From Gimesia fumaroli (GTDB taxonomy: Bacteria; Planctomycetota; Planctomycetia; Planctomycetales; Planctomycetaceae), in contig NZ_CP037452.1 of the NCBI RefSeq assembly GCF_007754425.1, positions 2,182,664 through 2,246,663 on the forward strand: a stretch of 64,000 nucleotides of DNA, read 5' to 3'. The notes beneath the pieces are model-generated. The model made no database searches. It was not told where the DNA came from and saw nothing but the letters and a program-made list of their open reading frames with translations. Every line of letters starts with the position of its first letter. Positions within the stretch are counted from its first letter, which is position 1. Positions 55,535-64,000 of the stretch are shown piece by piece. A program made the position numbers and the translations under genes.

Positions 55535-56962
55535 ATGAGTGTGAGATCTTCAAAAGGTCGCTGCGCTGGCCCCATGAAACGCCGTACGTTCCTGGAAATT
55601 GGTGGATCGAGCATGCTTGGTCTGGGGATGTGCGATTTACTTCGTCAACAGGCTTTGGCGAAAGCGATCGGGGATTCAACGGAAGACACTTCGGTGATTT
55701 TTGTCTGGCTTCCCGGCGGTCCGCCTCATATGGAAACCTATGACATGAAACCAGGGGCTCCGGCAGAGTATCGGGGCGAACTGGATCCGATCCGGACGAA
55801 CGTGCCTGGTCTTGATGTGTGTGAAATGCTTCCCCAGCACGCGAAGATCGCAGATAAGTTCACACTGATCCGCTCTATTCATCATGAATTTGCGGATCAT
55901 GGTGGCGGACATAAACGATTGATGACAGGTCGCATTCCTGCAACGCCCGTGGGAACCATTAATGACGCTCCCGCTGTCAGCAGCATTGTGAAAAAAATGC
56001 TGGAGAAAAATGGCAGCGAAATGCCGGTCTGTGTCTCTGAAGTCGATTCTTCTCGGGCGAACATTGATACATTTGCGATGGGACCGGCTTATCTCGGACC
56101 TTCCTCGACACCGTTCATGGTGGCCGGCGATCCCAGTAATCCCGATTTCAAAGTACAGAACATTGGCGTCAAAGCTTCGATGGAAACGCGGCTGGATGAC
56201 CGGATTGCCATGCTGAAAGGAATTGATAAATTCCGGCGTGACGTCGATAAGAGTGGCTCAATGGAAGCCATGGACAGCTTTAACCGTCAAGCCATCGATA
56301 TGCTGACCAGTGAAAAAGTACGCAACGCATTCGATCTTTCCAAAGAGCCCAAAGAAATCCGCGATCGCTATGGCTGGAATGCGTATGGTCAGCGGGCCAT
56401 TCTGGGCCGACGTCTGGTTGAATCAGGCGTGAGATTCGTCACGATGGTCTGGGAGCACCCATTTCCCGGCAAACCAACACCCAAGACGGCTGCCTATAAC
56501 TGGGATTCGCACGCCGTCAATGCGCATCTGTTTAAAGACTGTGACTGGCGTTTGCCTCCTTACGATCAGGCTGTCTCAGCTTTGATTGAAGATCTCTATC
56601 AACGTGGCCTGAATCGCAGAGTGTTGTTGGTCGTCACTGGGGAATTTGGTCGGACTCCCAAAATTTCGGTTCAACGAGGAACGCAGACCGGAGTCATGCA
56701 GCCCGGTCGCGACCACTGGCCAAAAGCAATGTCGGTTCTGGTTTCCGGTGGCGGAATGCGAACCGGTCAAGTGATTGGTGCGACAAATCCCAAGGGAGAA
56801 TATCCGGTTGAACGTCGTTTGACTCCCAATGATCTTTGGGCAACTGTGTACCGGCATCTGGGAATTGATCATGAATTTGTATTACATGATCTCCAGGGGC
56901 GCCCCGTGCCAATTTTGCCGTTTGGTAAGCCAATTCGCGAACTTCTGCCAACCTCGGCCTGA
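55535..56962 (+). CDS. DUF1501 domain protein (Tat signal)
   Basis: The protein has 475 residues. The ATG at 55535 has GGGAAG six bases upstream and is preferred over a downstream ATG at 55574 with no RBS. Residues 14-33 form a twin-arginine signal (MKRRTFLEIGGSSMLGLGMC). The DUF1501 pattern follows: FVWLPGGPPHMETYDMKPGA, HGGGHKR-MTG, VRFVTMVWEHP, NWDSH, TGEFGRTPKI and GRDHWPKAMSVLVSGGGM. The protein folds like sulfatases and phosphatases and is exported folded. It is the second DUF1501 gene here and differs clearly from the one at 22.6 kb. Divergent from the DUF1549/DUF1553 gene across 253 bases. Confidence 0.9.
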   Translation: MSVRSSKGRCAGPMKRRTFLEIGGSSMLGLGMCDLLRQQALAKAIGDSTEDTSVIFVWLPGGPPHMETYDMKPGAPAEYRGELDPIRTNVPGLDVCEMLPQHAKIADKFTLIRSIHHEFADHGGGHKRLMTGRIPATPVGTINDAPAVSSIVKKMLEKNGSEMPVCVSEVDSSRANIDTFAMGPAYLGPSSTPFMVAGDPSNPDFKVQNIGVKASMETRLDDRIAMLKGIDKFRRDVDKSGSMEAMDSFNRQAIDMLTSEKVRNAFDLSKEPKEIRDRYGWNAYGQRAILGRRLVESGVRFVTMVWEHPFPGKPTPKTAAYNWDSHAVNAHLFKDCDWRLPPYDQAVSALIEDLYQRGLNRRVLLVVTGEFGRTPKISVQRGTQTGVMQPGRDHWPKAMSVLVSGGGMRTGQVIGATNPKGEYPVERRLTPNDLWATVYRHLGIDHEFVLHDLQGRPVPILPFGKPIRELLPTSA

Positions 56963-57003
56963 TTCTTTTTCTTTCGTCAGCGGGGCTGCTGTCACCTGGA
57001 GAG

Positions 57004-57570
57004 TTATATCAGGGCCTTGGACAACCAGTTCCCGATGAGAATGGCAATCAGGAGTGTGCCGAACCATTTCGGCCAGCGGAGGTCCATTACCGACAGGGGT
57101 GGTTGGCACATCATATAAATGCGATACGGGATTTGAGCAATCAACGTCAAAGCCATGATCCAGCCGATTCGGTTCTGTTGAAAAGATGCTGCCAGGTTTC
57201 CATCTGCCAGAGCGATAAAGCTTCTGGTGAGACCACAGCCCGGGCAGCTGACGCCAAAGATGGCACGAGAGCCACACAGTTCGGGGATAGGCAGTTGAGG
57301 AAACCAACTGACTTCCACCTTCCCGGTGTCCAGTGTGCTCATGCTGAACGCCGCCAAGATGACAAAAATAGAGAATCCCAGCATAACACGTTGCCGTTTC
57401 CGGAACACTCTGATTCGCGCCTGTAAGTATTCCTCATCAATCTCTTCGTGAGTCTCATCAAGCTCATCAGGAAGTTGATTTTTTTGAGTCACCTCGCTCT
57501 CTCCCTCATCCCGAATTTGAGAAGAACTTCCAGTGAGGGGACGGTGATGTTGATTGATATGGATATCCAT
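57004..57570 (-). CDS. DUF2752 membrane protein
   Basis: The protein has 188 residues. An acidic, polar N-terminus of about 55 residues leads to three membrane helices. CPGCGLTRS at 109-117, in the loop between the first and second, is the hallmark of DUF2752 (YhhN-unrelated small membrane family of unknown function). It is the last gene of the ubiquitin-like operon, starting five bases after the E2 gene's stop codon. The partner role in that system is inferred from position only; the two Cys could bind metal or form a disulfide. Confidence 0.85.
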   Translation of the reverse strand: MDIHINQHHRPLTGSSSQIRDEGESEVTQKNQLPDELDETHEEIDEEYLQARIRVFRKRQRVMLGFSIFVILAAFSMSTLDTGKVEVSWFPQLPIPELCGSRAIFGVSCPGCGLTRSFIALADGNLAASFQQNRIGWIMALTLIAQIPYRIYMMCQPPLSVMDLRWPKWFGTLLIAILIGNWLSKALI

Positions 57571-57575
57571 GATTT

Positions 57576-58214
57576 TTATACAACAGGGATTTCGATGATT
57601 GCTTCACATTTTTTACAGCGGACTTTGCGTTTCTGAAATTCTGCTGGTAATCGGTATTTAGCCTGACATGAAGGGCAAACGAGTATTCTTTGACTCTGAG
57701 TCTTCTCGTTCGATTCTTCTGTCCTGGATACAGGTTGTTTTTTCTTACTCTTTTCTTCCGGGAGAAGGCTTACGGTATCTGTGGGAAACTCCTCACTGTT
57801 TTGTTCGGCCCAGCGGGCGGCTTCTCCATTGAGCGGGCTTTTGAGGTTGTAACTCTGATACGCCAGGATTTCACCAATACGGATGATGATTGACTGCAAT
57901 GACTCACCGGCGCTCCAATGATCGCCGACACAAATTGCATGTGGCGCGATATTGGGATGGAAGACCGGGCTGAGCATGCGGCACTGTGGTGGTGTTCGTG
58001 GGTAGTTCCGGGGTAGAGAAATTTCTACAGTATGGGTTTTGACCGGAACCACTTCCTGGTTTTGCATGCGGACGCTTTTGATGACGTATTGCAACTGAAA
58101 TTTTTCAGGTGGATCTCCGGTGACTTGCAAAAGAGAAACACGCGGATGCAGGCGAACATATTCTTTCAGTTTGGCATAGTCAGCAGCGAGCCTCCGCAGT
58201 CGAACATTGCTCAT
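57576..58214 (-). CDS. E2-like ubiquitin-conjugating enzyme with C-terminal zinc ribbon
   Basis: The protein has 212 residues. Residues 1-140 follow the E2 (UBC) fold: an N-terminal helix, the strand-turn YPRTPPQCRMLSPVF, the HPN motif (86-88), the candidate catalytic Cys95 seven residues later (ICVGDHWSAGESLQSII; the matching region in eukaryotic E2s is ICL--LK--WSP--TI), Trp100 and SPLNGEAA (126-133). Residues 176-212 form a zinc ribbon with Cys180, 183, 200 and 203. It would accept a ubiquitin-like protein from E1 as a thioester and pass it on. All neighbours in the operon are E1, JAMM and RING proteins. The alternative, a non-catalytic UEV-like protein, is made less likely by the Cys. Confidence 0.85.
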   Translation of the reverse strand: MSNVRLRRLAADYAKLKEYVRLHPRVSLLQVTGDPPEKFQLQYVIKSVRMQNQEVVPVKTHTVEISLPRNYPRTPPQCRMLSPVFHPNIAPHAICVGDHWSAGESLQSIIIRIGEILAYQSYNLKSPLNGEAARWAEQNSEEFPTDTVSLLPEEKSKKKQPVSRTEESNEKTQSQRILVCPSCQAKYRLPAEFQKRKVRCKKCEAIIEIPVV

Positions 58215-58239
58215 CTAAATGGAACCTTGATTATTACGA

Positions 58240-59550
58240 TTAGTTATTTGTTTCGGATACATTGGCATCATCGCTTTCTATTTTACCCTGCTGAGCCGGG
58301 ATTTGAAAAGTGCCTGGTATCAAGTCGAACAGCGTATTTATTGAGATGGCAAAGCCGAGACCTTCTGCGACTCTTTTATCTCCCGTCATCGTGTTGATGC
58401 CAATGAGAAATCCGTTCTCATCATATAACCCGCCACCTGAATTTCCGGGATTCAGCGGGGTGGTTGTTTGAATGATCTGGTAGGTAAACGCGCCCTTGGT
58501 CTGTTTCCGATACTGAGAAAGATTGCCAGTGGAGTGCGTCCAGCCAAGGGCATGCGGATTACCAATGGCAAAGACTTTTGAACCAATCAGCGGGGCTTTT
58601 TTCTTGTTCCAGAATGCATCACTTATGACTTCTTTGTCGAGCGGTGCCGAGATCAAGGCCAGATCGATTCCATGTGGCGCAATCCATTCAATCTGGCCTT
58701 GGACAGGAATTTGACCAATGGCCTGGACTGTGACCGGATCCGATTTGTCAAAGTCGTCAGCTACTACGTCCCGAGAGTCGTCATTATACTCAGAGTCAAT
58801 CACATGACGATTTGTCACAATCAAAGACTTTCCATTGACTGATGTTAAAATGACTCCACTACCCATTCCTCGGCCGAACAGGCCGTTGTTGACTTCGATC
58901 AGGACATTTGACTTCATTGCTCTCTTTAAGTCGGCTGGTAAATTGTCCAGGGATGTAGGGTCAAAGGCATATTCACTGAATGCAATCGAATTGGTGCGGG
59001 GCGTGTCCATGTAAAAATACAATCCTGCAGACCAGCCGATAATTTCGAAAAAGCCGATCATTAACCCTGCAACAGCTAAAGCGAATCCTTTTTTGTGAGT
59101 CGGATGAGAAACTAATGCTATGCAGGCCAGGATCATGGCGAAGAGCCCCGTGATGATCCCAAACAAGGGGATGCCCAGAAGCGCGATGACAAATGCCCAG
59201 ATTGCAAGCTTATTCCATATCTGTTTTGGTTTTTCAGAAATGGTCAGCGCGTTGTCCGTGTAACTTGGGATGACAGGAAGTGGCTCTGCATGGTTTAGAT
59301 CGTCTCGTGAAATGACGAGTGCCGATGTGGAGGCTTTGCTCATAGTTCCTTGAGAGCATTGATAGGACCCGCATTGCTGGTATTCCGTCCAACACGTCTG
59401 GTGATGAATTCCCCCACATTGCATACAACTGGCGGTCAATTCTCCCTGTTCGATTTCTTTATTGCACCGCGCACATTTAACTCCCGCTTCCCGCTCTCCT
59501 GCAACGCGGATATACGGGCTCTCTTTTGAACTGCTTCTGCTCTGATCCAT
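58240..59550 (-). CDS. RING finger-membrane-trypsin-like serine protease fusion
   Basis: The protein has 436 residues. Residues 22-68 form a prokaryotic RING finger (Cys26, 29, 42 and 45, His49/50, Cys53, 60 and 65). Two membrane helices follow (about 112-165, DUF4190-like, with KGFALAVAGLMIGF). Residues 210-425 are a trypsin/DegP-type protease with His249 (VTNRHVID), Asp296 (GIDLALI) and Ser371 (PGNSGGGLYD). No PDZ domain is present. The RING probably works with the E2 as an E3-like element, while the membrane helices place the protease either in the cytoplasm with the RING or, if the number of helices is odd, outside. The combination of E3 and protease in one protein is unusual. Confidence 0.88.
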   Translation of the reverse strand: MDQSRSSSKESPYIRVAGEREAGVKCARCNKEIEQGELTASCMQCGGIHHQTCWTEYQQCGSYQCSQGTMSKASTSALVISRDDLNHAEPLPVIPSYTDNALTISEKPKQIWNKLAIWAFVIALLGIPLFGIITGLFAMILACIALVSHPTHKKGFALAVAGLMIGFFEIIGWSAGLYFYMDTPRTNSIAFSEYAFDPTSLDNLPADLKRAMKSNVLIEVNNGLFGRGMGSGVILTSVNGKSLIVTNRHVIDSEYNDDSRDVVADDFDKSDPVTVQAIGQIPVQGQIEWIAPHGIDLALISAPLDKEVISDAFWNKKKAPLIGSKVFAIGNPHALGWTHSTGNLSQYRKQTKGAFTYQIIQTTTPLNPGNSGGGLYDENGFLIGINTMTGDKRVAEGLGFAISINTLFDLIPGTFQIPAQQGKIESDDANVSETNN

Positions 59551-59627
59551 AAGGGCTCATCCAGATTAAAATTAACAAAACCGGAAGCCGATCTTGCTGA
59601 TTGTCATTAAAGGAAGTCAAGGCTTCC

Positions 59628-60332
59628 TCAATTACTCAGTATAAAGAACAGAAACATCAAAAGGGTATAAAAAATGTTTAAAGCGACCGAAACCCAGGCA
59701 AGAATAGATGTAATCGGTCCTGATTGTGAAAGTTGTTTCCTTCGCGGTAGTACATAAATCAAACTGACCAGCAGTGCGAGTGGGGCCAAAATGCCGATCA
59801 TCGAAAAAACAAACAGACCGATCACACTGTTCCTCATGGAATCAACACGTTCTCCTCGATCGTATTGATTTTTTAAATCATTGAGAGACATTGGATCGGT
59901 GGAATCAAACGTTGTACTACAGTATCTGCATTTAAGGGCGATTGATTTGATCACTTCGCCGCAGGCGGGACACTCCTTGGTATCCCCCCATGCGGTTAAT
60001 GGTACTTGCGAAGTTTTGTCAGAGTCGACTGGAGCTGGCGCCTGTTGACAACCGTAGGTCCCGCAGCCACCAATTTCACTCCAGCATTCACGATGATGGG
60101 TTTGATCACAATCGGGACATTGAACACAGCTTTCATTCGCCTGGATATCGCTTTGACAGATCGGACAGACCGCCGTCTGGCCAACATCCAGAGGAGCACT
60201 GAATAGAACTTTCAAGTCCGTCGTTAATGCGATCTGCTTCTTGCATTTAGGGCATTGAAATGAACGGTTTCGCTCTGAATCCGGAAGTCGAACCTTCACG
60301 CCACATTCACAAGTTACGATATTTTCAGCCAC
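59628..60332 (-). CDS. RING finger membrane protein with two zinc ribbons
   Basis: The protein has 234 residues. Order: zinc ribbon (Cys8, 10, 27, 30), a prokaryotic RING finger (Cys56, 59, 69/72/75, His79/80, Cys83, 90, 95; CPIC, HHRECW and GGCGTYGC), zinc ribbon (Cys121, 124, 135, 138), then two membrane helices at about 170-195 and 205-232. The RING resembles that of the RING-protease next door, so the two are paralogous and may serve as alternative E3-like factors. The zinc-rich part faces the cytoplasm if the tail is a hairpin in the membrane. E3 activity is inferred. Confidence 0.83.
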   Translation of the reverse strand: MAENIVTCECGVKVRLPDSERNRSFQCPKCKKQIALTTDLKVLFSAPLDVGQTAVCPICQSDIQANESCVQCPDCDQTHHRECWSEIGGCGTYGCQQAPAPVDSDKTSQVPLTAWGDTKECPACGEVIKSIALKCRYCSTTFDSTDPMSLNDLKNQYDRGERVDSMRNSVIGLFVFSMIGILAPLALLVSLIYVLPRRKQLSQSGPITSILAWVSVALNIFYTLLMFLFFILSN

Positions 60333-60430
60333 GTCAGGAATTTCTTAAAAGAAGCATCAATAGGGGAGGTCTTTGTATCGGGTAAACGGGTTCTAAGACT
60401 TCCATGAATTTACTGAACTGTGAAAAACGG

Positions 60431-60979
60431 TTAATTCTGATTCAGAGCTCTGATTACAGCAGAAATGACATTCCAGAGGACGGCAAAACCGATTGATACC
60501 AGAACCATTTTTCCCCCTTTGGGTTTCCCTTGAATCATCCAGACAATTCCTGCAATACACCCAATGCCTGAACAAATAGCGGCAACCACCCAGTCGCCTG
60601 TTGTCATATCCTCATCGACGTCTGCATTGTCTTTCTTCCGGTTTTTCTTAGCCTCTCTTTTGGCTTTCGCTTTCAGTGCCGGATCAAATATTTCTCCACA
60701 AAATCGGCATTTGGATGCTGACTTGGCGATGTCTTCGCCGCAACTGGGGCAAGCCTTTCTCTGTGCGGAGGGAACGGATTCTCCTTCATTGGGGTCAAAA
60801 TCGTCAAAGCCAAATGGATCATCCTCACCTGTTGACTCGGCATCATAAATTTCTTCTTCATCAGGATTCGGGATTTTGATGACTCCGCCGCAATCTGGAC
60901 ACTTCCCTTTTTTTCCGGCAGCGGAGTCCTTGGCTTTAATTTGCTTTCCACAAAAACTACATGTTACACGAATAGTCAT
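60431..60979 (-). CDS. Zinc-ribbon membrane protein
   Basis: The protein has 182 residues. Two zinc ribbons (Cys7, 10, 27, 30 and Cys77, 80, 91, 94) flank an acidic linker (DPFGFDDFDPNEGE). A basic Lys/Arg/Ala stretch (about 102-118) and two membrane helices follow. It resembles the neighbouring RING protein without the RING. Probably an adaptor at the membrane; the substrate or partner is unknown. There is no clear RBS upstream. Confidence 0.78.
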   Translation of the reverse strand: MTIRVTCSFCGKQIKAKDSAAGKKGKCPDCGGVIKIPNPDEEEIYDAESTGEDDPFGFDDFDPNEGESVPSAQRKACPSCGEDIAKSASKCRFCGEIFDPALKAKAKREAKKNRKKDNADVDEDMTTGDWVVAAICSGIGCIAGIVWMIQGKPKGGKMVLVSIGFAVLWNVISAVIRALNQN

Positions 60980-61043
60980 AGTGCAATTTTTCTTGGTCTA
61001 AGATTGAATGAGATGGATTAAAAGGGATCAGGAAAAAGGCGTC

Positions 61044-62111
61044 TCAACTGGAGTTCTCTTTCAAAGAAAACTCCAGTACTGTTTTTCCAAGTACAATTTG
61101 GTCTTTATCATGTAATGTGCTGGCGGTGATGGGGATCCCGTTGACATAGGTCCCATCAGGGGTACTGCAATCTTCAATTTCAAAACGCCCCCCTCGATTG
61201 ATAATTAATGCATGTCGCGGTTCAATCGCATCGTCTTTGAATAGATAGATATCGGCTTTGGGTGAACTTCCCAAAACGGTTGTGTCTTTATAAATGATAA
61301 ATTGTTTCCCGGCGAGTGGTCCTTTCTGCATCAAGACCCAGGCTGTTTTCGTCCAACCCTCAACTAGCCCGATAAACAGTCCCACAAAGATCCCAATGGT
61401 TGTGAGTCCAACTGCTCTGGAGTAGGTTGCCTGGCCATCTTCACTGGTGAGGACCAGACTGAGCGGATCGAACAAAAGTCCTCCGATAAGACCTCCTAGA
61501 ACGGCTCCCACCAGGCCATTGATAATGACTTTTTTTTCCTTCAAGGCAATTCCCTGTCCGATGCCTGCAGGAATCGAAACGATACTCCATGCCGCGGCCC
61601 GTCCCATCATCAGGACCAGCAGGGCCATGCCCGTCGGCATTTCTCCAGGGAGAGGGTCTTCCATTAAGCCAAGAGCGATGGCAGACATGATGCCAAATAC
61701 GATTCCCGTGGGAAATAATGCAATGAGTCCCCCAAGAAATCCCACACCCAGGCCGACAACACTCGATTTCAGTGCCCGCAGGCTGTTTCTACAAATCAGG
61801 CCTTCTGCGGCTCCCAGAAAAAGACCAATAAAAGCAGCCGTTACGGGAAACAGAAGCAGTGCCGCAAGATTGAATTCCTCGCCGATTTCATTGTCATCAA
61901 AGAATGGTTCCAGTATCAGCCACCCCAGAAATGCGCCCACACCACCGCAAAATGCCATATAGAACCAGTTGGCATAGATGACACGAACGATCCAGGGGCG
62001 ATCATTGATCGGGCCTGCATCTCTCCGGAGAAAGGACTGCAGTTCGACATATTCATCAACATCAGGTGCATAGAGCTCATCTGACGTGATCTTCATGGAA
62101 TCTGACATCAT
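61044..62111 (-). CDS. Membrane protein with C-terminal FHA domain
   Basis: The protein has 355 residues; AAGGA stands four bases before the first of two adjacent ATGs. Residues 45-255 hold about six membrane helices rich in glycine. Residues 265-350 form an FHA domain: VLGSSPKADIYL, then EPRHALI, then DCSTPDGTYVNGIPI. The Ser/Arg/His pocket that binds phosphothreonine is largely kept (PRHA, STPDGTYVNG). FHA domains read protein phosphorylation. In this operon it may bring phosphorylated substrates to the membrane-bound conjugation machinery. Planctomycetes have many Ser/Thr kinases that could supply the mark; none is in the window. Confidence 0.85.
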   Translation of the reverse strand: MMSDSMKITSDELYAPDVDEYVELQSFLRRDAGPINDRPWIVRVIYANWFYMAFCGGVGAFLGWLILEPFFDDNEIGEEFNLAALLLFPVTAAFIGLFLGAAEGLICRNSLRALKSSVVGLGVGFLGGLIALFPTGIVFGIMSAIALGLMEDPLPGEMPTGMALLVLMMGRAAAWSIVSIPAGIGQGIALKEKKVIINGLVGAVLGGLIGGLLFDPLSLVLTSEDGQATYSRAVGLTTIGIFVGLFIGLVEGWTKTAWVLMQKGPLAGKQFIIYKDTTVLGSSPKADIYLFKDDAIEPRHALIINRGGRFEIEDCSTPDGTYVNGIPITASTLHDKDQIVLGKTVLEFSLKENSS

Positions 62112-62195
62112 GTGATCCTTAAATTGATGAATTCGTCCTTCGTTTACTTATCGTCTCATCACAGATAAATAAAATGGCGATAAAATAGTGTATCC

Positions 62196-63371
62196 CTATT
62201 GACTCTCTGATTTCAATATCTCAGATTCTTGAGATACTTTATTTTTGGCATTTGGTTTCTTCTCGGAATCCTCTTGCTTTTCGGATTGTTTTTCATGTGA
62301 AGCATCAGCCGATTTGGAATTCGTTTTCGAGCCATTTTGGAGCTCTCTTTGCTTTCGCTGAATATACTTCGTCAGTGCTTTGCGTTCCTGATCTGTCAGC
62401 CCATATTGTGTTTGAATCATGCTCAACGCTTGCGAACAAAGAGTAAGTGTTTGTGAAATCGCTGTTCGCTTCTTGTTTTCAAGTTCAATCTGCTCTTTGG
62501 TTGCGTCCTCTGGCATTGTTGTTGAAAGAGTTCCAAACAGGTGATTGACTTCCTGTAGGCGCTGATTCACTTCTCTGAGTTTATCCTCGAATCCAGGCTT
62601 GATCAATTTATTTGTGCCATAGTGTTCGACAACACCGGTCACAATCATTTCCTGCTCCCATCTTGATTTTGTTCCAGCGAGCAGGTAACCAATCAGAAAC
62701 AGACAGAGCCCCATCATAAGTTGAATGGATCCTCGCATCAGAGGGTGCTCTTCATGCTGTTGTGTCGCAGCCGCTCGCGGATCCGGTGAGGAATGTTGCG
62801 AGATACTGCCGGTCTGAGTTAAAGGTGTCTGGCTGGCTTCAAGGCTCCAGACTTTTTCCCCCACCCAATAATGACTCATGAGAACCGGTTTTCCGTTTCG
62901 CCATTCAAACACGCCTTCCAGCTTGCGAACAGGGTCGACGACATAAGCAACTTGACCGGGGCCGGAAAAAAAATTCTCCTGTATGAATACATCACGATCA
63001 GAAAGAAAAATTCCAAAATCAGGATGAGAGTGATACCAGCCAATAATTCTCAAGTCCGAATATTTAGAATCCATTTCACTATTGATCTGAGACCATGATT
63101 CATGTGTAAATGTGACTTCGGCAAATTTACTGGCTGCCTGATTACAACGAATGTATTGAGTGACACTAGCAAAAGGGCCATTCTCATCTTGTTGCCATTC
63201 TCCGACAAGAACACCGCAAATTTCGACGCTGGTATCGTTTGAAGCGTGATCCTGGATGCCCTGGTGGACAGTCGGGGAGATTAAAAGTCGAAAATCAGAG
63301 TGTGGCTTGATCGGGAATTCTGCTTCCGGGAACTTCTCTTTTTTTAACTGATGTATATCGGGGCCGGCCAT
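62196..63371 (-). CDS. JAMM/MPN (JAB) isopeptidase with membrane helix and coiled-coil tail
   Basis: The protein has 391 residues. The N-terminal domain carries the complete JAMM site: Glu50 (VEICGVLVGE), then His114 and His116 (GWYHSHPDFG), Ser124 and Asp127, exactly the HxH-x7-S-x2-D spacing of active zinc deubiquitinases. A membrane helix at about 212-232 follows and then a charged coiled-coil tail of about 150 residues (Glu/Lys/Gln-rich). It should cut a ubiquitin-like protein from substrates or process its precursor. The ATG overlaps the E1 stop codon by one base (TAATG), so translation is coupled. Confidence 0.9.
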   Translation of the reverse strand: MAGPDIHQLKKEKFPEAEFPIKPHSDFRLLISPTVHQGIQDHASNDTSVEICGVLVGEWQQDENGPFASVTQYIRCNQAASKFAEVTFTHESWSQINSEMDSKYSDLRIIGWYHSHPDFGIFLSDRDVFIQENFFSGPGQVAYVVDPVRKLEGVFEWRNGKPVLMSHYWVGEKVWSLEASQTPLTQTGSISQHSSPDPRAAATQQHEEHPLMRGSIQLMMGLCLFLIGYLLAGTKSRWEQEMIVTGVVEHYGTNKLIKPGFEDKLREVNQRLQEVNHLFGTLSTTMPEDATKEQIELENKKRTAISQTLTLCSQALSMIQTQYGLTDQERKALTKYIQRKQRELQNGSKTNSKSADASHEKQSEKQEDSEKKPNAKNKVSQESEILKSESQ

Positions 63372-64000
63372 TATTTTGTTTTCCCTGCTTCGAGAGACCC
63401 CAACACCTGTTGGCGGTCTCCAGATAATTCATAAAATTTCTGTTCCATCCCCACTCGCCCCGTAAGAATATCCCACAAGGGGACTCCCAATTCATTTAGT
63501 GTCAGATCAAGGAATTTCGACTTAGAATTGAGAGAGTGAAAAAACTGAGGCGCCCGTTGTTCCCCACAATCGGGGCAAATGGCATTGCTCTCAGTGACTT
63601 GGCCCAGGGAAGAGTGGTGAATTTCAGTTTCCTGACAGGAATGACACGTGAATGATTCGATTAAATCCTGATTAAACTCTGCAACGGCTTCCGGACCGAG
63701 ATCAGATAAAATGAGCTCAAGAAACGTACCAGCCTGGATCTGACTGTTCTGCGAAAGTTCAATGACTGGTTCAAATATTTCATGTGTTGGACAATCTTCC
63801 AGGCGAGAGTATTTCACAAGGTAACTCTGATGATTCGTACCATCGAAAACAAACCCTTGTCCTTCAAGCGTTTCGAGTCCATGAATCATCTTTACCGCTT
63901 CCTGAACCTGAATCCCTGCAATGACGGATGAGGTTGTCGGAGTTGTCGGGACTTTTCCCTGTTCCATTTCGTCACGAGTCAACAGGGCACAGCTTCTTCG
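63371..64000 (-). CDS. C-terminal part of an E1-like (ThiF/MoeB) activating enzyme (partial)
   Basis: The frame is open to the window edge, so the N-terminal ATP-binding part is missing; 209 residues are visible. The start of the visible part (RRSCALLTRDEM, then PTTPTTSSVIAGIQVQEAVK) is the end of an E1-like adenylation domain; the Cys four residues into the visible part is a candidate for the thioester or metal site but cannot be confirmed. A zinc ribbon follows (visible residues 119/122 and 142/145, CHSC and CPDC), then a C-terminal domain with LTLNELGVPLWDILTGR. It would activate a ubiquitin-like modifier with ATP and hand it to the E2. It is the upstream gene of the operon that is visible here. 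Confidence 0.82.
   Translation of the reverse strand, partial: RRSCALLTRDEMEQGKVPTTPTTSSVIAGIQVQEAVKMIHGLETLEGQGFVFDGTNHQSYLVKYSRLEDCPTHEIFEPVIELSQNSQIQAGTFLELILSDLGPEAVAEFNQDLIESFTCHSCQETEIHHSSLGQVTESNAICPDCGEQRAPQFFHSLNSKSKFLDLTLNELGVPLWDILTGRVGMEQKFYELSGDRQQVLGSLEAGKTK

What the first reader, a model, noticed from the sequence alone, without database searches (positions are those of the whole stretch)
57004..64000. Eight-gene ubiquitin-like conjugation operon, mostly membrane-bound
In transcription order: E1-like enzyme (partial), JAMM isopeptidase, FHA membrane protein, zinc-ribbon membrane protein, RING membrane protein, RING-protease fusion, E2-like enzyme, DUF2752 membrane protein. Spacings are 5-98 bases and one pair overlaps. 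Seen: intact JAMM residues, HPN plus Cys95 in E2, RING ligands. Known: Aravind and co-workers described bacterial E1/E2/RING/JAB clusters from comparative genomics, and related Bil operons act in antiphage defence. Inferred: here the machinery works at the inner membrane, with FHA reading phosphorylation and a protease as effector. Six of eight genes carry membrane helices, which sets it apart from the soluble Bil-type operons.
Basis: partly seen in the sequence, partly recalled or inferred. Interest (0 to 1): 0.95.

Follow-up and report, generated by a model that had tools for sequence, protein, structure and literature searches.

The report
Membrane-anchored bacterial ubiquitin-like tagging operon
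A bacterium carries, in one nine-gene operon, what looks like a complete ubiquitin-style protein-tagging machine (tag, three classes of enzymes, tag remover), most of it anchored in the cell membrane and partly fused to a protease, a set-up usually thought of as typical of complex cells.

Summary
The operon has nine genes: the missing tag (UBL) gene lies 589 bases beyond the window, just upstream of the E1. The UBL core ends in P-x-I-x-A-G in 82 of 84 rows, followed by nothing or a variable tail, as expected of a precursor trimmed to glycine. Catalytic residues of E1, E2, JAMM and protease are conserved; the E2 model has a UBC fold. The gene order recurs in other Planctomycetota and partly in MAGs labelled Riflebacteria, Myxococcales and others. 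All 30 genomes (of 392) with a strong UBL match also have the E2; four genomes with only Cys-less E2s lack the UBL. Two inferences need correcting: the FHA domain has lost its phosphothreonine contacts, and the protease probably faces the periplasm (inferred). Best reading: membrane-based UBL conjugation coupled to proteolysis, for envelope quality control or signalling; target unknown. Bacterial E1/E2/RING/JAB operons were predicted in 2011 (recalled), so this is a variant of a known kind.

The parts
63371..64000 (-). E1-like enzyme, 402 aa, GTG start; the window holds only this part of it (whole gene 63371-64579 in extrapolated coordinates). ThiF adenylation domain, candidate catalytic Cys197, C-terminal UFD-like domain with C312/C315/C335/C338. 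Beyond the window, 9 bases upstream of it, lies the UBL gene: extrapolated 64589-64861, minus strand, G000:C1:2247252-2247524, 90 aa, beta-grasp (YukD family), C-terminus ...LQPEITAGS
   Evidence: E1; orthologue model. UBL; only YukD-family hit in the genome
62196..63371 (-). JAMM isopeptidase with one membrane segment (216-234); E50, H114, H116, S124, D127
61044..62111 (-). six-TM protein with C-terminal degenerate FHA domain
60431..60979 (-). zinc-ribbon protein with two C-terminal membrane segments
   Evidence: (sub-threshold zinc-ribbon hits)
59628..60332 (-). RING (C4HC3: C56 C59 C72 C75 H80 C83 C90 C95) plus zinc ribbon plus two TM; candidate E3
58240..59550 (-). RING - membrane segments (DUF4190 region) - HtrA/trypsin-like protease (H249, D296, S371), no PDZ hit
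57576..58214 (-). E2 (UBC; H86 P87 N88, C95) with C-terminal zinc ribbon
   Evidence: only UQ_con hit in the genome
57004..57570 (-). DUF2752 membrane protein (2-3 TM), last gene

Best explanation
A complete ubiquitin-type conjugation/deconjugation system assembled on the inner membrane. Steps: (1) the UBL precursor is trimmed by the membrane-anchored JAMM protease to expose the glycine of ...PEITAG; (2) the E1 adenylates this glycine and takes it on Cys197; (3) its UFD-like domain presents the E2, which takes the UBL on Cys95; (4) the membrane RING protein, and the RING of the protease fusion, recruit E2~UBL and direct transfer to target proteins at the membrane; (5) the RING-HtrA fusion links tagging on the cytosolic side to a protease that probably faces the periplasm; (6) the JAMM protein removes the tag; FHA-like, zinc-ribbon and DUF2752 proteins form the membrane scaffold or sensor. 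The most likely purpose is quality control or regulated turnover of envelope proteins, an analogue of ER-associated degradation. Shown here by sequence: genes, order, conserved catalytic residues, UBC fold, E1 domain layout, glycine terminus, co-inheritance. Inferred: that conjugation occurs, the order of steps, the E3 role, the membrane side of the protease, target and purpose. My confidence is about 0.85 for UBL conjugation and 0.4 for envelope quality control; the number below is for the whole.
For: Domains. UBL C-terminus: P-x-I-x-A-G in 82 of 84 rows (80 PEITAG), 20 ending exactly at AG, the others with 1-51 further residues. UBL is the slowest-evolving of the products compared: median identity to the window genome's protein 71% versus E1 58, FHA 55, E2 52, RING 44 (12 loci), JAB 40, protease 39 (10 loci), in 13 loci with UBL, E1, JAB, FHA and E2. 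Gene set conserved: of 36 named loci with 8.5 kb or more beyond the UBL, E1 34, JAB 34, protease 29, E2 28, FHA 27, RING 27. Catalytic residues; HPN with a nearby Cys in 50 of 60 E2 rows, the ten others being 5 Cys-less orphans, 2 cut by contig ends and 3 with the Cys a little further on. E2 fold; E1 adenylation plus UFD-like layout. Co-occurrence: 30 of 30 genomes with UBL at 1e-10 have the E2 among 392; the 4 genomes with only Cys-less E2s have no UBL, 15 of the other 16 do. The JAB profile's best PDB match is an Rpn11-like protein (6fjv, 6fnn, 6fno), and 6fnn also holds the fourth-best match of the UBL profile.
Against: No biochemical data. UBL-to-ubiquitin PDB matches are weak (best E 0.004). 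B. subtilis YukD is reported not to be conjugated (passage in PMC1779556). The RING's last pair is C-x4-C, and its matches to solved RING E3s are weak and mixed with PHD and C1 fingers. Simple charge counts put the JAMM domain 'outside' more often than 'inside' (34 vs 18, 10 undecided), opposite to what the model needs. The same crude scan flags membrane segments in 21 of 74 E1 and 14 of 59 E2 family rows, so it is not precise. No proteasome or unfoldase gene in the operon. 8 of 36 long loci lack a recognised E2 and 2 lack E1 in the stretch held. At the looser threshold, three weak UBL matches (G169, G249, G415) lie in genomes without an E2 match; one search scored only 6 candidates per genome.
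Confidence: 0.55

Rival explanations
1. Anti-phage defence: a membrane version of the Bil/Bub idea, in which UBL tagging at the membrane disables phage particles or triggers the protease to kill the infected cell.
For: Patchy in the genus (3 of 15 genomes). In G000 and G017 it sits right after a DUF1501-type gene, where five other genus members examined (G008 among them) have different neighbours, and G008 carries its operon elsewhere, so it moves or is re-acquired. E1 and JAB weakly match PADLOC E1-E2 (54 bits) and JAB (31 bits) models; the protease matches RT-Protease models (34 bits).
Against: UBL and FHA proteins match no PADLOC model and the E1 matches BilD only weakly (25 bits). Of 97 flanking proteins, no PADLOC family matched more than 2 at 1e-10, mainly PD-T4-6 models (kinases, recalled) (no random control). 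The UBL is very conserved over distant loci.
Confidence: 0.2
2. Lipid or envelope-polymer conjugation, Atg8-like: the UBL is attached to a membrane lipid rather than to proteins, to remodel the membrane.
For: Six of nine products are predicted membrane proteins, the JAMM enzyme included.
Against: The E2 has HPN and a UBC core and its profile matches UBE2A, UBE2N and UBE2K; RING proteins are present; no lipid enzyme was recognised in the operon.
Confidence: 0.07
3. Non-conjugated YukD-like scaffold of a secretion or envelope complex, with ubiquitin-like enzymes as assembly parts.
For: Pfam assigns the UBL to YukD, whose B. subtilis member is reported not to be conjugated (PMC1779556 passage).
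Against: C-terminal glycine with removable tails (82 of 84 rows); E1, E2 and JAMM catalytic residues at 90% or more of rows; no ESX-type gene stood out among recurrent flanking clusters (judged by reading).
Confidence: 0.05
4. Sulfur carrier system like ThiS-ThiF or MoaD-MoeB.
For: NCBIfam scores of the E1: ThiF 130 bits, MoeB 112, UbaA 104, Ube1 72, all below cut-offs.
Against: E2, RING and JAMM in the same operon; UFD-like C-terminal domain; AG, not GG, terminus; no cofactor gene in the operon.
Confidence: 0.03

Closest known systems
Predicted bacterial E1/E2/RING/JAB/YukD-like-Ubl gene neighbourhoods (Burroughs, Iyer & Aravind 2011, Mol Biosyst 7:2261; recalled, paper not held)
   Same: Same component classes; as recalled, it proposed that YukD-like Ubls are conjugated and that some bacterial RINGs carry TM helices.
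   Different: I could not check whether this exact nine-gene module, the RING-HtrA fusion, the FHA and DUF2752 proteins, the tailed PEITAG precursor or the cross-phylum spread are described there.
Caldiarchaeum/Asgard ubiquitin operon (James et al. 2017, PMC5654768; abstract and passages seen)
   Same: Ubiquitin-like precursor with C-terminal tail, E1-like enzyme with C-terminal UBL-like domain, E2, small RING, Rpn11/JAMM; our UBL and JAB profiles both match proteins of PDB entry 6fnn (Caldiarchaeum, recalled).
   Different: Bacterial; tag ends AG not GG; JAMM, RING and most partners membrane-anchored; protease fusion, FHA and DUF2752 added.
BilABCD (PMC11354881 passages)
   Same: UBL, E1, E2, JAMM in one operon; JAMM exposes the C-terminal glycine.
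   Different: BilA has two Ubl domains, BilD an inactive plus an active adenylation domain, BilB a CEHH motif; here one Ubl domain, one adenylation domain, HPN E2, RINGs and membrane anchors.
CBASS Cap2/Cap3 and 6A-MBL
   Same: E1 adenylation and JAB domains (NCBIfam 6A-MBL 43 and 13.5 bits).
   Different: Separate E1 and E2, a UBL, RINGs; far below the curated cut-off of 320 bits.
DegS/HtrA membrane protease
   Same: Trypsin-like HtrA-type protease with intact triad (NCBIfam degP/HtrA 80.6 bits).
   Different: No PDZ hit, below cut-off; N-terminal RING and DUF4190-type membrane region.

Membership tests
Conjugated ubiquitin-like modifier | beta-grasp domain with exposed or removable-tail C-terminal glycine | tested here: met
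   YukD PF08817 1.9e-8 above cut-off (by sequence, no model made); P-x-I-x-A-G in 82 of 84 rows
Conjugated ubiquitin-like modifier | covalent attachment to targets | not testable with these tools
   needs biochemistry
Canonical E1 | ATP-binding adenylation motif plus candidate catalytic Cys | tested here: met
   G45 A46 G47 A48 G50 N51, R80, K93, D137, C197 at 90% or more of 75 rows; the Cys is invariant in 31 hand-picked members
Canonical E1 | UFD that binds the E2 | tested here: inconclusive
Canonical E2 (UBC) | UBC fold with HPN and catalytic Cys | tested here: met
   UQ_con 7.5e-14; Foldseek to UbcH5c, RAD6B; 24 invariant columns of 26 hand-picked members include H86 P87 N88 C95
JAMM/MPN+ isopeptidase | E...HxHx7SxxD | tested here: met
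   E50 H114 H116 S124 D127 invariant in 17 hand-picked members
RING E3 | eight ligands of a binuclear treble clef | tested here: met
   C56 C59 C72 C75 H80 C83 C90 C95 invariant in 13 hand-picked members; C4HC3 with longer last loop is what PMC11354881 reports for prokaryotic RINGs
RING E3 | E2 binding and ligase stimulation | not testable with these tools
   needs biochemistry
FHA phosphothreonine reader | conserved Arg, Ser and Asn contacts | tested here: not met
   Arg 0 of 50, Ser position E/A/D in 46 of 51, Asn 4 of 51 (contact roles recalled, positions read from the GarA alignment)
BilABCD | tandem-Ubl BilA, double-adenylation-domain BilD, CEHH E2 | tested here: not met
   one Ubl domain, one ThiF domain, no CEHH spacing after C95 (read); family features from PMC11354881 passages
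Archaeal Caldiarchaeum-type ubiquitin operon | di-glycine ubiquitin with E1, E2, small RING and Rpn11 | tested here: not met
   AG terminus; membrane segments in RING and JAMM proteins; works alike, not filed as a member
HtrA | trypsin-like protease with PDZ | tested here: not met
   protease and triad yes; no PDZ hit and scores under cut-offs
Known PADLOC defence system | model hits for the set of genes | tested here: not met
   only weak single-domain hits

The most novel reading that the evidence does not exclude
A bacterial counterpart of ER-associated degradation: a ubiquitin-like tag, E1, E2 and membrane RING E3s on the cytosolic face, joined through one polypeptide (RING-TM-HtrA) to a protease on the far side, so that tagging inside drives proteolysis outside the membrane; a module ancient in, or exchanged across, many bacterial phyla, and mechanistically nearer to the archaeal/eukaryotic ubiquitin system than to the defence-type Bil systems.
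Probability: 0.3. Interest if true: 0.88.

Novelty: new variant of a known kind. Interest (0 to 1): 0.73.

Why it matters
If it works as inferred, bacteria have a full E1-E2-RING ubiquitin-type pathway, organised on a membrane and coupled to a protease, possibly outside phage defence. A survey dated 2014 stated that none of the bacterial genomes it analysed held a complete ubiquitin toolkit (PMC4327156, abstract and passages), whereas here single-contig genomes (G000, G008, G017) carry the component set. The system offers a compact, conserved module in which RING-E2 cooperation, JAMM maturation and membrane-protein tagging can be reconstituted, and a test case for where eukaryotic-type ubiquitination came from. 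Orphan Cys-less E2s in genomes without the tag offer a bacterial parallel to eukaryotic UEV proteins.

Tried and rejected

Rows dropped and choices: one search found 172 candidate flank proteins and printed 120; I passed 97, leaving out 23 by hand without a fixed rule. Searches show the first 25 of 30 and of 72 families. Bit cut-offs were set by me; UBL rows under 60 bits (e.g. L162, L163) were left out of the tail count, and L161 has only the second half of the UBL. The 84 UBL rows include contigs present twice (L037/L093, L048/L094, L056/L096, L039/L104, L046/L108). Alignments A2, A3, A5 and A6 hold members picked by hand. Five E2-only genomes (G185, G198, G230, G300, G313) were not examined; G300 had a weak UBL hit.
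Full report
WHAT IS THERE. The window is G000:C1:2182664-2246663 of a 7.70 Mb single-contig genome. The contig continues: the E1 is 402 aa, and 9 bases upstream of it lies a 90-aa UBL gene, window-equivalent 64589-64861. Upstream of the UBL there is a gap of 379 bases to the next long ORF of the same strand (DUF1501 type, my reading of the sequence); downstream of DUF2752 the next long ORF is convergent. So the operon, judged by spacing only, has nine genes: UBL, E1, JAB, FHA, zinc ribbon, RING, RING-protease, E2, DUF2752.

CONSERVED RESIDUES. Across loci, columns conserved at 90% or more include E1 C197 and its ATP-site residues, JAMM E50/H114/H116/S124/D127, E2 H86/P87/N88/C95, and protease H249/D296/S371. 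The RING is C4HC3 with four residues between the last pair, the layout that PMC11354881 (passages) gives for prokaryotic RINGs. Apart from L153 (cut by the contig end) and L160 (only the first part matches), the UBL rows of 60 bits or more have the core end P-x-I-x-A-G, 82 of 84, with 0 to 51 residues after it; 20 rows, L037/L093 among them, stop exactly there. An invariant glycine plus a variable tail is what a JAMM-matured precursor predicts. Of 60 E2 rows, 50 have HPN with a Cys within ten residues; 5 are Cys-less orphans, 2 are cut by contig ends, 3 have the Cys slightly further on.

DISTRIBUTION. E2 matches in 48 of 150 genomes of the order; by my count 25 of these are only the zinc ribbon and 23 cover the UBC part (one, G122, in two contig-end pieces), 4 of the 23 having only Cys-less orphans. 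In the genus 3 of 15 genomes have it. UBL: 32 of 392 phylum genomes by single sequence at 1e-3, 30 of 392 by profile at 1e-10; E2: 38 of 392 at 1e-10. All 30 are among the 38, though part of them belong to a more divergent class with UBL beside E2; three of the other eight are the Cys-less E2 genomes, five were not examined. Three weak UBL matches (G169, G249, G415) are in genomes without an E2 match. Among 20 chosen genomes UBL is in 15; the five without are the four with only Cys-less E2s and G138, a fragmented assembly. A scan of named genomes gave 76 loci, the 72 longer matches at 48-85% UBL identity, with titles including Planctomycetota, Riflebacteria, Deltaproteobacteria/Myxococcales, Acidobacteria, Verrucomicrobia, Armatimonadetes, Sumerlaeota, WS1 and Zipacnadia; most are MAGs, whose labels can be wrong. 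Of 36 with at least 8.5 kb beyond the UBL: E1 34, JAB 34, protease 29, E2 28, FHA 27, RING 27, zinc ribbon 16, DUF2752 13 (my cut-offs). Among clusters present in four or more of these loci, none beyond the nine families stood out except antisense shadows and small sets in 4-5 loci, among them a Ser/Thr kinase (my reading) in 5.

LOCATION. In G000 and G017 the operon lies right after a DUF1501-type gene; in five other genus members examined (G008 among them) the neighbour there differs, and G008 carries its operon elsewhere. The operon therefore moves or is re-acquired. Of 97 flank proteins of named loci, no PADLOC family hit more than 2, and the 25 of 72 Pfam families shown are mixed metabolic, transport and regulatory. 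There was no random control, so this weakens but does not exclude a defence role.

HOW IT PROBABLY WORKS. Trimming by the JAMM protein, activation by E1 Cys197, transfer to E2 Cys95, RING-guided transfer at the membrane, removal by JAMM. In the window genome UBL, E1 and E2 lack predicted membrane segments while the other six have them (a crude scan that also flags some E1 and E2 relatives), so soluble tag chemistry seems to be docked on a membrane platform. The RING-protease fusion probably has its RING inside and its HtrA-type protease outside (charges and split first segment in relatives), which would couple tagging inside to cleavage outside. These steps are inference; only the anatomy and conservation are shown. 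The JAMM topology by simple charge counts goes against it (34 outside, 18 inside, 10 undecided); I place the JAMM domain inside because I see no signal peptide (not tested with a predictor) and its presumed substrate is cytosolic.

The FHA domain is related to GarA/OdhI, but the three phosphothreonine contacts (roles recalled) are largely lost across the family while a different motif, GSSPKADIYLFKD in the window's protein, is kept in similar form; it more likely binds another partner. Membrane proteins are six of nine. The system is not Bil (membership table).

KNOWN OR NEW. A bacterial E1/E2/RING/JAB/YukD-like set was predicted by Burroughs and co-workers in 2011 (recalled; not held). PMC5654768 (passages) notes 'some examples of complete operons' in bacteria, citing Koonin & Yutin 2014; PMC11354881 (passages) found human-like E2s in bacteria only as single instances, Riflebacteria among them; PMC4327156 (abstract and passages) found no complete bacterial toolkit. 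Hence: a new variant of a known, experimentally little-explored kind (the last from recall). What the ten searches did not show in print are the nine-gene membrane module, the RING-HtrA fusion, the tailed PEITAG precursor with its spread over phyla, the degenerate FHA, and the Cys-less orphan E2s.

Noticed in passing
L050, L051, L052, L053, L054 (E2 ORFs): Orphan E2 homologues that keep HPN but have lost the catalytic Cys (e.g. HPNIDDKSIYLEEHW), outside any UBL operon in the stretches held; 4 of the 5 genomes have no UBL match, G079 has both an active operon and a Cys-less copy. UEV-like pseudo-E2s in bacteria.
   Followed up: partly
L145:8864-15350, also L147, L148, L150, L151, L161: Variant loci in Armatimonadota/WS1/Zipacnadia-type and unlabelled MAGs: typically a protease gene upstream of UBL, then E1, two JABs, E2, RING, a third JAB (single loci vary).
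   Followed up: no
L055:8171-12945 and genomes G167, G292, G306, G320, G332: A second, more divergent UBL class (about 30-40% identity) near E2 in the same phylum; L055 has E1, E2, UBL ending QAG, JAB.
   Followed up: no
L042, L045 (genus g25): E2 and DUF2752 are split off from the rest and sit after a DUF1549-type gene (my reading); the UBL lies on another contig.
   Followed up: partly
L046 / L108 (same contig): An operon in which FHA, zinc-ribbon and RING genes were not found: UBL, E1, JAB, RING-protease, E2, DUF2752 only, a possible minimal set.
   Followed up: no
window 56962-57004 and L180-L184: Insertion point: genus mates keep the DUF1501-type gene ending at 56962 but have other genes after it (in L180, L181 and L184 a similar predicted oxidoreductase).
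   Followed up: partly
L157, L158, L159: Records titled Bifidobacterium breve MAG carry this UBL locus; the label is probably wrong.
   Followed up: no
L002 (G000:C1:527096-527380): A second, weaker Prok-JAB match elsewhere in the genome (E 1.2e-4, below cut-off).
   Followed up: no
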